In this document: positions 22,801 through 25,769 of the stretch, one piece after another
Numbering within the stretch: position 1 is the stretch's first letter
How the letters are laid out: every line of letters starts with the position of its first letter
Source of the DNA: a virus
Direction: 5' to 3' (one strand)
DNA length: 28,762 bases
Virus record (IMG/VR): IMGVR_UViG_3300042314_001958
Coordinates: 1 to 28,762 of that record
Translations under genes and position numbers: made by a program
The notes under the pieces: model-generated
Databases searched by the model: none
What the model was told of the DNA's origin: nothing
Seen by the model: the letters and a program-made list of their open reading frames with translations, nothing else

Positions 22801-23457
22801 ATGTCCAAAAAGTCCGACAAAACTGAGTTTTATTTAGGAAATCCTAATCTTCCAGCAGCTGGTGCAGTAATAGCTTACGAGCCATGGATGATAAAGGAGC
22901 TTCAAAAAGCTAAAGATAATATATTATATTTTGCAGAAAATTTCTTCTATATTATTAACCTAGATAGAGGTAGAGAGAAAATAAAGATGCACCCTTGTCA
23001 AAAGCGAGCTATTCGCAAGATGAGAGATAATAGATTCTTTATTCTCTTAGCATCTAGACAGATCGGCAAGTCTACTATGATGACCATTTATATTTTATGG
23101 CAGGCTTGCTTTATGGATGATCAGAGAATTCTTCTAGTAGCAAACAAAGAGGCTACTGCTATTGAAATCTTTCAAAGAGTGCGTCTAGCGTTCGAAGAAC
23201 TTCCAGTATGGTTAAAGCCTGGGGTTAAGGAATATGGTAAAACCTCAATGACACTAGATAATGGTAGTAGGATAGGTATTACGACTACAACAGGTACGGC
23301 TGCTCGTGGTCAGTCTGTTAATTGTGTAGATGGTAGAACGACAATTACCTTACGTGATAAAGAAAGTGGTGATGTATTTGATTGTACTATGGAAGATCTA
23401 GAAAGTTTATTAAAGGGCGGAGATATTATACCAGTTTTTATAAATGAATCAGCTTAA
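22801..23457 (+). CDS. Large terminase N-terminal half fused to N-intein (fractured gene 17)
   Basis: This encodes 218 residues. Residues 1-174 are the first part of the T4-type terminase ATPase (gp17-like): adenine-side Gln67 (KMHPCQKRA) and Walker A ASRQIGKST (84-92). At Cys175 (codon 23323-23325), directly after GTAARGQSVN, the terminase reading ends and a 44-residue N-intein begins (CVDGRTTITLRDKESGDVFD), containing the block A start and then a stop at 23455. Walker B and the nuclease are missing here and lie in the gene at 24249. The intein half is short, ending before block B, as in the atypically split TerL inteins known from metagenomes. Splicing should join Asn174 to Cys115 of the second protein. 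A clear promoter is not seen. Confidence 0.9.
   Translation: MSKKSDKTEFYLGNPNLPAAGAVIAYEPWMIKELQKAKDNILYFAENFFYIINLDRGREKIKMHPCQKRAIRKMRDNRFFILLASRQIGKSTMMTIYILWQACFMDDQRILLVANKEATAIEIFQRVRLAFEELPVWLKPGVKEYGKTSMTLDNGSRIGITTTTGTAARGQSVNCVDGRTTITLRDKESGDVFDCTMEDLESLLKGGDIIPVFINESA
23323..23454 (+). other. N-intein coding segment (44 residues)
   Basis: Starts with the nucleophile Cys and block A-like VDGRTTITL; ends at the gene's stop. The last 14 residues (KGGDIIPVFINESA) extend past the length of the shortest known N-halves. Confidence 0.87.
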
Positions 23458-23487
23458 CGCCATTTCATCTAAAACCAATCGTTTATA

Positions 23488-23495
23488 CATAAATA
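23488..23495 (+). promoter_or_regulatory. Late promoter box CATAAATA (endonuclease 23501)
   Basis: A late-type box 5 nt before the ATG at 23501. It supports that start over the ATG at 23444, which lies upstream of the box. Confidence 0.72.
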
Positions 23496-23500
23496 AATAT

Positions 23501-24247
23501 ATGCGTAAAAATGATCCTAACGATAACAGAAAATTTAACTATTTGTATAAAATTACAAATATAACTAATAATAAAATTTATATAGGGGTTCATAGAACTG
23601 ATAATATGGAGGACGGTTATATGGGAAGCGGAACTAATATTAAAAGAGCTATAAGTAAGTATGGTATTGAAAATTTTAAAAAAGAAATAATAGCTATTTA
23701 TAGCACGTATAAAGAAGCATTAGAACACGAGAGTAGTATTGTTACTGAAGATTTTATTAATAGTGTCGATACATATAATATAAAAGTAGGAGGGTATGGG
23801 CCGTGCATTTTTTCTGAGGAGCATAAAAAGAAAGTTTCAGAATCTAGAAAAAAACGATTTAAAGAAGAACAGGAATTTAGAAAAAAATACTTAGATGCTG
23901 CTCGTAATATAGAACGAAGAAAAAAAATTAGCATAAACCATAAAAAATGGATAGAGGATAATCCAGATCAGCACAGGGAAAGAATGTTAAAAATTAATAC
24001 AAATTCTGATAAAATTAAAAAAACAGCTCTATGGCATCAAGGAAAAAAACGTAGCGCTAATGCATGCAAAAATATAAGCGAGGGTATTAAAGCTTCATTA
24101 GAAGATCCTGAGGTTAGAAAGAGAAGATCAGGTATAGGCTGTAAGTACTACTACAATCCTGATACAGGTGAAGCTAGGAGATTTATGATTAGTGATAATA
24201 TTCCTACGGGATGGAAATTAGGTACAGGTCCACGAACAAATAAATAA
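23501..24247 (+). CDS. GIY-YIG homing endonuclease inside the split terminase
   Basis: From ATG at 23501 this encodes 248 residues. The GIY-YIG nuclease core is at the N-terminus: NYLYKIT (13-19) and KIYIGVHRT (25-33, with Tyr27, Gly29 and Arg32), then YMGSG (40-44) and a likely catalytic Glu77 in EALEHES. A NUMOD3-like DNA-binding segment (FSEEHKKKVSESRKK, 104-118) and a basic linker follow, and a C-terminal YYYNPDTGEARRF domain with IPTGWKLG is common in phage endonucleases. It is free-standing, with its own late box, lying 43 nt after the N-half stop and 1 nt before the C-half start. It probably spreads the fractured terminase locus by cutting intein-less alleles at the insertion site. Confidence 0.9.
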   Translation: MRKNDPNDNRKFNYLYKITNITNNKIYIGVHRTDNMEDGYMGSGTNIKRAISKYGIENFKKEIIAIYSTYKEALEHESSIVTEDFINSVDTYNIKVGGYGPCIFSEEHKKKVSESRKKRFKEEQEFRKKYLDAARNIERRKKISINHKKWIEDNPDQHRERMLKINTNSDKIKKTALWHQGKKRSANACKNISEGIKASLEDPEVRKRRSGIGCKYYYNPDTGEARRFMISDNIPTGWKLGTGPRTNK

Positions 24248-24248
24248 T

Positions 24249-24590
24249 ATGGCTGATTTAACTAATTATAAATGTTACAATAACTCTAAATATGAAATTC
24301 TAACCCATAAAGGATTCAAGGATTTTAAAGGTTTATTAATAGGTAATAATTCTAATAAAATTAGATTGAATTTATCTTATAATAAAGAGTTAATATGCAC
24401 TCCTAAACACAAACTATTTTCCGAAGAGAGTGGGATAATTTTTGCTGAAGATCTTCAAGTTGGTAGTAGGTTGTATGGTGGGGTTGAGGTAACCTCTATA
24501 GAAAAATATACTGATGAAAAAGAGGTTTATGAGATTCTCGAAGTAAGTGATAATCACGCATATTATGCAAATGGTGTCTTATCTCATCAA
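24249..24590 (+). other. C-intein coding segment (114 residues) ending His-Gln
   Basis: Carries splicing blocks B, F and G. The last codon is CAA (Gln) instead of the usual Asn, followed by TGC (Cys +1). Confidence 0.9.
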
Positions 24591-25769
24591 TGCCTAGTAA
24601 TTGATGAGATGGCCTTTATCGAACCTCATTTAGTTGAAGAGTTTTGGAAATCAGTTTTTCCTATTATTACTTCATCTAAAAAATCTAAAGTGTTTGTTTG
24701 TTCTACTTCTAATGGTACAGATAACTTATTTTATAAGTTATATGATGGTGCAGAAAAAGGAGAGAACGGATGGGCTTATGATAAGATTAAATGGGATGAG
24801 GTACCAGGTAGAGATGAAAAATGGGCTGCTAACACTAGACAGGCAATTGGTTCTATAGAAGCTTGGCTTCAGGAATTTGAATGTCAATTCTTATCTTCAG
24901 GTGAATCGTCTATTGATGAAGCTCTTTTCTTAGAGATGTCACAGCAATGTACGGAACCTAAAATACTATTAGACGAAGGTAATTATAAAATATGGGAGGA
25001 GCCTGATTCCTCTAGAGTTTATGTTGCGGGAGTTGATATATCTGAAGGGGTTGGTATCGATGCTTCAGTTATGCAGATTTTAGATATAACAGATCTAAAA
25101 GATATAAAGCAAGTAGCTACTTACCATAACAGACATATACCACCGTTAGAGTTTGCTAATAAAGTTCATACTATTCTCAAAAACTGGGGATCACCTTTAG
25201 CCTTAATAGAAAGAAATAATTGCGGTGCGCAGGTAGTTGATAGATTGGCTTTTGATATGGGTTACGAGAAGGTAGTGTCATATGGTGCAAAAGTTGCAAA
25301 TAGAGCAAAACCTCAAATGGGTATGATAGCTCATACTAATACCAAATATAAAGGAGTTATGAATATGCGCTACTTTATAAATGAGATGAGATCTGTTACT
25401 ATAAGAGATATAGACACCCTTAAAGAGCTTAAAGATTTTGTAAGATATCCTAATGGTACCTGGAAGGCAAAAGGAGGTTATCATGACGATAGAGTAATGT
25501 CGTTAATGTATGCATTGTTCATTTTAGAAAAAGAGTTAACGGAAAGATATTTTGAAATAGTAGAACTCGATGATCACGGAAAGCCTAGTTTTATAGAACC
25601 TATGGATTTTGGCGTTGCTATGTTTGAGGATCCTACCTCTATATATAATGATTTCGAGGTAGTAGGATTAAATAATACATACATGACACCTGTAGTATTC
25701 GGTATGGGTGATTCAGAACAAGTAGCAGAAATAGAATTTTTACAACAAGACGGCTGGACCACACTATGA
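24249..25769 (+). CDS. C-intein fused to large terminase C-terminal half (fractured gene 17)
   Basis: This encodes 506 residues. Residues 1-114 are a C-intein: MADLTNYKC start, KYEILTHKGFKDFKG, block B CTPKHKLF (Thr51, His54), block F with VYEILEVSDNHAYYANGV, and block G ending VLSHQ (His113, Gln114). Extein Cys115 (codon 24591-24593) begins terminase again at Walker B, LVIDEMAF (116-123), followed by the STSNG coupling motif (152-156). The RNase H-like nuclease has Asp263 (VAGVDISEG), Glu322 (ALIERNN) and Asp413/Asp414 (GYHDDRV). Spliced with the first half the product is about 566 residues (T4 gp17 is 610). Its 3' end overlaps the tube-fold gene by 4 nt (ATGA). Confidence 0.92.
   Translation: MADLTNYKCYNNSKYEILTHKGFKDFKGLLIGNNSNKIRLNLSYNKELICTPKHKLFSEESGIIFAEDLQVGSRLYGGVEVTSIEKYTDEKEVYEILEVSDNHAYYANGVLSHQCLVIDEMAFIEPHLVEEFWKSVFPIITSSKKSKVFVCSTSNGTDNLFYKLYDGAEKGENGWAYDKIKWDEVPGRDEKWAANTRQAIGSIEAWLQEFECQFLSSGESSIDEALFLEMSQQCTEPKILLDEGNYKIWEEPDSSRVYVAGVDISEGVGIDASVMQILDITDLKDIKQVATYHNRHIPPLEFANKVHTILKNWGSPLALIERNNCGAQVVDRLAFDMGYEKVVSYGAKVANRAKPQMGMIAHTNTKYKGVMNMRYFINEMRSVTIRDIDTLKELKDFVRYPNGTWKAKGGYHDDRVMSLMYALFILEKELTERYFEIVELDDHGKPSFIEPMDFGVAMFEDPTSIYNDFEVVGLNNTYMTPVVFGMGDSEQVAEIEFLQQDGWTTL

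What the first reader, a model, noticed from the sequence alone, without database searches (positions are those of the whole stretch)
22801..25769. Large terminase made as two proteins that must be joined by a split intein, with a homing endonuclease gene between
Seen: the terminase stops being terminase at Cys175 of the first gene and resumes at Cys115 of the second. The ends are a 44-residue intein-like N-half and a 114-residue C-half with blocks B, F and G. A free-standing GIY-YIG gene with its own late box fills the gap. Known: fractured genes with split inteins and intervening endonucleases were described from marine metagenomes, and an atypically split TerL intein (AceL-TerL) has a very short N-half. 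Inference: active packaging motor forms only by trans-splicing, so DNA packaging is gated by two separately started transcripts.
Basis: partly seen in the sequence, partly recalled or inferred. Interest (0 to 1): 0.88.

Follow-up and report, generated by a model that had tools for sequence, protein, structure and literature searches.

The report
Phage packaging motor split by intein
In this bacterial virus the gene for the DNA-packaging motor is cut in two by a self-splicing protein element with a DNA-cutting enzyme gene in the gap; the two protein halves must be stitched together after translation, and the sequence shows that the whole package recently jumped in from a related virus.

Summary
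Confirmed, and an example of a known kind. TerL 1-174 plus a 44-aa intein N-half (22801-23457), a Seg-like GIY-YIG endonuclease gene (23501-24247) and a 114-aa intein C-half plus the rest of TerL (24249-25769) form a fractured gene with an atypically split intein at Walker B (GQSVN|CLVIDEMAF). Joining the exteins gives 566 aa, 558 identical to the intact TerL of L004. About 30 viral loci carry the same split intein with Cys1, block-B His, Cys+1 and dN/dS well below 1. The 1,268-nt cassette is 99.7% identical to L002/L003 between flanks 62-91% identical, and near-identical empty alleles exist: recent homing. Loci that lost the endonuclease keep its 3' remnant and stay split. Closest known: AceL/GOS/Cat-TerL. 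'Gating by two separately started transcripts' is not supported: only the endonuclease has an in-register late box, and the C-half abuts its stop codon. Splicing itself was not tested. The most surprising result lies in relatives: TerL in four ORFs joined by three split inteins (L256, L317), one ORF supplying only the 11-residue Walker B segment.

The parts
22801..23322 (+). TerL N-extein, residues 1-174 (ATPase domain with Walker A)
   Evidence: PHROG terminase 2.9e-47, PF03237 5.5e-6; 99% identical to intact TerL of L004
23323..23454 (+). Intein N-half, 44 aa, starts Cys1; stop codon 23455-23457
   Evidence: Absent from empty alleles L004/L072; homologous to N-halves of about 30 loci and to the first ~40 residues of the contiguous intein L121
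23489..23495 (+). Late-promoter-like box ATAAATA, 5 nt before the endonuclease ATG
   Evidence: ATAAATA-N5-ATG 11 found against 0.34 expected
23501..24247 (+). Free-standing GIY-YIG (Seg-like) homing endonuclease gene, 248 aa (the ORF is open from ATG 23444, which overlaps the N-half)
   Evidence: PHROG 314 homing endonuclease 2.1e-41, PF19835 SegE 2.2e-5; start conserved in L007; YIG, Arg, Glu77 and Asn93 positions invariant in three divergent members
24249..24590 (+). Intein C-half, 114 aa, blocks B (TPKH), F and G, C-terminal Gln
   Evidence: TIGR01443, PF14890; family profile finds Cat at 1.9e-15
24591..25769 (+). TerL C-extein from Cys+1 (Walker B CLVIDEMAF, then nuclease domain), with stop codon
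   Evidence: PF17289 1.6e-7, PHROG 2 terminase 2.8e-27

Best explanation
A mobile fractured-gene cassette: an atypically split class 1 intein inserted at the Walker B site of the phage terminase, travelling with its own GIY-YIG homing endonuclease gene. Shown by sequence: exact insertion, conserved intein halves under purifying selection, empty alleles, and a recent-transfer footprint. Inferred: the N-TerL/intein-N and intein-C/C-TerL chains are made separately, associate and trans-splice through Cys1 and Cys+1 to give a 566-aa TerL; the endonuclease cuts intein-free terL alleles of co-infecting phages so that repair copies the cassette in. The split is tolerated because splicing restores the protein; no regulatory role is needed.
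For: Intein blocks and PDB/HMM matches; sister contiguous intein L121 models as an intein fold, pLDDT 91.6, all top PDB matches inteins; exact empty alleles and predicted 566-aa product with 558/566 identities to L004; about 30 split homologues with Cys1, block-B His and Cys+1; dN/dS below 0.4 in both halves; no other TerL match in large related contigs; cassette 99.7% identical to L002/L003 between flanks 62-91% identical, donor-like sites just 5' of the insert; endonuclease-less split loci with 3' remnants; C-half abuts the endonuclease stop.
Against: No splicing or cleavage was observed. The C-terminal residue is Gln and not the usual Asn, and the penultimate His varies in the family. The N-half alone gives no HMM or PDB hit. 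The 5' flank contains sites that fit neither a pure L002 donor nor a pure L004 recipient.
Confidence: 0.91

Rival explanations
1. The two TerL pieces work together as a genes-in-pieces enzyme without splicing (as was reported for NrdA broken by a homing endonuclease), and the intein remnants are inert tails.
For: Gene-in-pieces NrdA without splicing is cited in PMC10448857 and PMC3322345; splicing was not tested here.
Against: Inert tails should decay: both halves keep their catalytic residues and dN/dS stays well below 1; Cys+1 is kept in every split locus, although intein-free TerLs can have Leu, Val or Thr there; the break lies inside the ATPase core right before Walker B.
Confidence: 0.05
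2. The gap is a group I or II intron carrying the endonuclease and is removed from the RNA, giving one contiguous intein-bearing chain.
For: GIY-YIG endonucleases often sit in group I introns; weak TIGR01453 'group I intron endonuclease' hit.
Against: No Rfam match in the gap even at E<=1; relatives with gaps of only 26-139 nt are still split; the C-half keeps its own start codon next to the endonuclease stop.
Confidence: 0.02
3. The split serves regulation: separate transcripts of the two halves time DNA packaging.
For: The endonuclease has its own late box, which could also serve the C-half downstream.
Against: No box before the C-half in any of 21 loci; patchy presence with near-identical empty alleles and endonuclease turnover fit a selfish element, not a conserved control.
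Confidence: 0.02

Closest known systems
AceL-TerL, GOS-TerL and their consensus Cat (natural atypically split TerL inteins; PMC11766414)
   Same: Short N-half and long C-half with block B in the C-half, Cys+1, in a phage large terminase; family profile finds Cat at 1.9e-15.
   Different: N-half 44 aa (25 and 37 in AceL and GOS), C-terminal Gln, inserted before Walker B. Inteins of another TerL site (WLQEF|C, L073) are far closer to Cat (3.6e-15 against 3.3e-6); the native sites of AceL/GOS were not available here.
Fractured genes (Dassa et al. 2009, doi 10.1093/nar/gkp095; not readable here, known from citations and memory)
   Same: Conserved phage gene broken by a split intein with a free-standing endonuclease gene in the gap, and a control element that comes with the endonuclease.
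   Different: The endonuclease is GIY-YIG/Seg-like; from memory the paper's new family was Vsr-like, which occurs here at the same site in L087. I could not check whether that paper lists GIY-YIG or TerL cases.
gp41-1 split intein
   Same: Best single-sequence PDB match of the C-half, 6.2e-7; phage-type split intein.
   Different: Split canonically with a long N-half and a short C-half (general knowledge), unlike 44/114 here.
TerL inteins of cultured T4-like phages (Maynard, PMC3868846; Campylobacter IBB_35, PMC3322345; two-gene TerL of phiR1-RT and SG1)
   Same: Intein in the same gene, some of them split with an endonuclease ORF in the gap.
   Different: phiR1-RT and SG1 are split a few residues downstream (IDE|C) with a TnsA-like ORF in the gap; Maynard's is described as an intein interrupting one coding sequence.
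T4 Seg / SegE GIY-YIG homing endonucleases
   Same: Domain and about 30% identity to Seg-like genes of T4-like phages.
   Different: Those are free-standing between intact genes (general knowledge); this one is locked into a split intein.

Membership tests
Class 1 intein | Nucleophile at position 1, block-B TxxH, blocks F and G, Asn or Gln at the end, Cys/Ser/Thr +1 | tested here: met
   Cys1, TPKH, NHAYYANGVLSHQ, Cys+1; conserved in the family. The end is Gln, the rarer choice.
Class 1 intein | HINT fold | tested here: met
   Shown for the contiguous sister L121 (pLDDT 91.6, top PDB matches inteins), not modelled for the window halves themselves; sequence matches
Class 1 intein | Splices | not testable with these tools
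   Needs expression; purifying selection is indirect support
Atypically split TerL inteins (AceL/GOS/Cat) | Naturally split with short N-half and long C-half that holds block B | tested here: met
   44 + 114 aa, separate ORFs 791 nt apart
Atypically split TerL inteins (AceL/GOS/Cat) | Sequence kinship to AceL/GOS/Cat | tested here: met
   Cat is the best PDB match of the family profile, 1.9e-15
Atypically split TerL inteins (AceL/GOS/Cat) | Same insertion site in TerL | tested here: inconclusive
   Native AceL/GOS flanks not available; Cat-like inteins here sit at another site (L073)
Fractured gene | Conserved gene broken by a split intein with a free-standing endonuclease gene between the halves | tested here: met
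   empty alleles
GIY-YIG homing endonuclease | GIY-YIG motif with catalytic Arg and Glu, and evidence of homing | tested here: met
   Motif and invariant residues, families, transfer footprint; cleavage not tested
T4-like large terminase | ATPase (Walker A and B) and RNaseH-like nuclease domains | tested here: met
   PF03237 in the N part, PF17289 in the C part; Walker A SRQIGKST and Walker B LVIDE in sequence
Group I intron | Conserved catalytic RNA core in the gap | tested here: not met
   No Rfam match at E<=1 in 23200-24700

The most novel reading that the evidence does not exclude
In relatives of the window the same kind of TerL is assembled from four separately translated chains by three different atypical split inteins (L256/L314, L317). 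One 153-155-aa chain carries only 11 residues of terminase, CLVIDEMAFIE, the Walker B strand, between the C-half of one intein and the N-half of the next (also in L315/L316 and L282, with two split inteins). Such a motor would need two or three non-cross-reacting trans-splicing reactions. The window is the one-cassette state of that series.
Probability: 0.78. Interest if true: 0.85.

Novelty: new member of a known kind. Interest (0 to 1): 0.62.

Why it matters
It gives a dense natural series for one intein site in an essential phage gene: empty alleles, contiguous mini-inteins, split with a GIY-YIG or a Vsr-type endonuclease, and split with the endonuclease deleted but its remnant left. That makes the origin of split inteins directly testable: the split state outlives the endonuclease. 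It adds about 30 natural atypical split inteins, mostly ending in Gln, as raw material for protein ligation. Relatives with two or three split inteins in one gene are natural tests of intein orthogonality.

Tried and rejected
Intron in the gap: Rfam at gathering and at E<=1, nothing. Host genomes: a scan of prokaryote genomes with the C-half alignment found no relative. N-half alone against NCBIfam and PDB: no meaningful hit, too short. Endonuclease profile against PDB sequences: no useful relative. Separate promoter for the C-half: an ATAAATA lies 2 nt before its ATG, out of the 5-nt register, and none is conserved in relatives. Intein tree: shallow support and long branches of the contiguous members, so the ancestral state was not decided; it does show endonuclease type changing inside one supported clade. 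Assembly error: rejected, since L002 and L003 and about 30 other contigs show the arrangement. Dassa 2009 could not be read.

Full report
Observation. ORF 22801-23457 encodes TerL residues 1-174 and then 44 residues beginning CVDGRTTITL. ORF 24249-25769 encodes 114 residues ending HAYYANGVLSHQ, then CLVIDEMAF and the rest of TerL. Between them, from ATG 23501, lies a 248-aa GIY-YIG protein. Both outer ORFs hit terminase families (PHROG 2.9e-47 and 2.8e-27; PF03237 and PF17289), the middle one homing endonucleases (PHROG 2.1e-41; SegE family 2.2e-5). The C-half carries intein blocks by TIGR01443 (above its cut-off), PF14890 (1.1e-6, below Pfam's curated cut-off) and PDB matches to gp41-1 and Cat.

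Empty sites. Of 80 loci found with the C-half in viral contigs most carry a TerL uninterrupted at this site; L004 and L072 are 98-99% identical to the exteins and read GQSVN-CLVIDEMAF without insert. Joining the window's exteins gives 566 residues, 558 of them identical to L004. The insert, 23323-24590, is therefore exact and lies immediately before Walker B.

Recent transfer. L002 and L003 carry the same cassette with 3 mismatches each in 1,267 aligned nt, while the TerL exteins differ by 9-25% and the next genes by 36-38% at the nucleotide level. Against the empty alleles the window is 98-99% identical in the 300 nt 3' of the insert but only 90% in the 261 nt 5' of it. In the last 58 nt of the N-extein 6 of 7 informative sites match the L002-type donor; 3' of the insert nearly all match the empty-allele lineage. 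This is the pattern of homing with one-sided co-conversion. L002 need not be the actual donor.

A conserved family. Scans with the C-half, the endonuclease and the N-half found the intein at this TerL site in about 40 loci, some of them the same virus in different assemblies. About 30 are split, typically with N-halves of 31-47 aa and C-halves of 113-117 aa, and with Cys1, block-B His and Cys+1. The C-terminal residue is Gln in 29 and Asn in 3 of the 32 split sequences listed, and Asn in the 4 contiguous ones. dN/dS is below 0.4 in both halves for all measurable pairs, though several synonymous distances are saturated. In related contigs of 60 to 204 kb the pieces are the only TerL matches. 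The contiguous sister intein L121 models confidently (pLDDT 91.6) and its best PDB matches are inteins. A profile of the family finds Cat, the consensus of AceL-TerL and GOS-TerL, at 1.9e-15 (Cat as described in PMC11766414).

States of the site. The same site is contiguous in L121, L123-L126, L133 and L135; split with GIY-YIG in most; split with a Vsr-like 408-aa ORF in L087 and a shorter ORF of that look in L315; split with an unidentified 160-aa ORF in L084/L085; and split with gaps of 26-139 nt and no gene in L091, L098, L107, L122 and L317. The short gaps of L107, L317 and L098 still encode the end of the endonuclease (none of 300 shuffles as good); L122 and L091 are weaker (1 and 5 of 300). 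These loci lost the endonuclease and stayed split. In the intein tree the supported clade of the window mixes GIY-YIG, Vsr-like and empty-gap members, so endonucleases turn over while the split stays; deep branches are unresolved.

Expression. ATAAATA-N5-ATG occurs 11 times in the window against 0.34 expected and marks tail and other genes. The endonuclease has it; the C-half does not. In 21 related loci 8 endonuclease genes and no C-half have the strict box, and the C-half start is within -17 to +7 nt of the endonuclease stop in 20. The C-half is best read as coupled to the endonuclease ORF, and the box as something that came with the endonuclease. Nothing points to timing of packaging by two transcripts, though it is not excluded.

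Mechanism. Shown: anatomy, conservation, selection, empty alleles, transfer, endonuclease loss. Inferred from established intein and homing biology: trans-splicing through Cys1 and Cys+1, and cutting of empty alleles in mixed infections. Untested: splicing activity with a C-terminal Gln, and the endonuclease's target.

Comparison with the known. This is a fractured gene of the kind named by Dassa et al. 2009 (cited in PMC10448857; the paper itself was not readable) with an AceL/GOS-like atypical split intein. It differs in the Walker B site, the 44-aa N-half, the Gln end and the GIY-YIG partner. Inteins at another TerL site (WLQEF|C, L073) are much nearer to Cat (3.6e-15 against 3.3e-6), so the window's intein is probably a separate allele. 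I file it as a new member of a known kind.

Relatives that go further. L256 (same contig as L314) has TerL in four ORFs with three split inteins (before Walker B, 11 residues later, and at WLQEF|C), separated by a GIY-YIG gene, a TnsA-like endonuclease gene (PF08722 1.3e-9) and a 280-aa ORF. L317 has the same three split sites with only the TnsA-like gene left, its 5' end being cut by the contig. L315/L316 and L282 have the first two. The second ORF carries only CLVIDEMAFIE (CLVIDECAFVE in L282) of terminase. No second TerL is seen in these contigs, but L256 and L317 are short. A search of the held papers for split intein, terminase large subunit, phage and trans-splicing together gave none; that library is partial. 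The cultured phages phiR1-RT and SG1 have TerL in two genes split at IDE|C with a TnsA-like ORF between, so the idea can be tested in the laboratory.

Noticed in passing
L256:393-6019 (= L314), L317:1-4250: TerL in four ORFs with three split inteins (before Walker B, 11 residues later, and at WLQEF|C); the second ORF holds only 11 residues of terminase.
   Followed up: partly
L315/L316:1789-7494, L282:4995-8940: Two split inteins 11 residues apart in one TerL; L315/L316 also have a contiguous intein at Walker A, and in the first gap a 274-aa ORF resembling the start of the Vsr-type gene of L087.
   Followed up: partly
L383 (Yersinia phage phiR1-RT g166-g168), L386 (Salmonella phage SG1): Cultured T4-like phages with TerL annotated as two genes; sequence shows a split intein at IDE|C with a 199-aa TnsA-like ORF in the gap annotated 'hypothetical protein'.
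   Followed up: partly
L007:2760-4451, L069:1922-3868, L315:1789-3483: Contiguous intein with a LAGLIDADG domain inside Walker A (RQIGK|ST) of the same TerL family.
   Followed up: no
L084:about 950-1464, L085: A 160-aa ORF that does not look like an endonuclease fills the gap between the intein halves.
   Followed up: no
L098, L107, L317: gaps between the halves: Remnants of the 3' end of the deleted endonuclease gene in loci that remain split.
   Followed up: yes
L027:2-865: A 49% identical GIY-YIG gene sits directly upstream of an intact terL, a possible free-standing stage.
   Followed up: no
window: 11 sites, e.g. 10404, 13576, 17971, 23489, 26354: ATAAATA box exactly 5 nt before ATG, far above chance and with hardly room for a leader; genes here show no clear Shine-Dalgarno sequence.
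   Followed up: partly
window:2124-2714: HNH-like ORF (weak PF01844, E 0.0056) on the strand opposite to its neighbours, perhaps another homing endonuclease.
   Followed up: no
window:4623-7186: Three adjacent ORFs that read like nucleotide-sugar genes (dTDP-glucose type dehydratase, pyrophosphorylase, reductase), by eye only.
   Followed up: no
window:10416-11828: 470-aa protein built of repeats like IGGGxxNxASGxxST among tail-fibre-like genes, by eye only.
   Followed up: no
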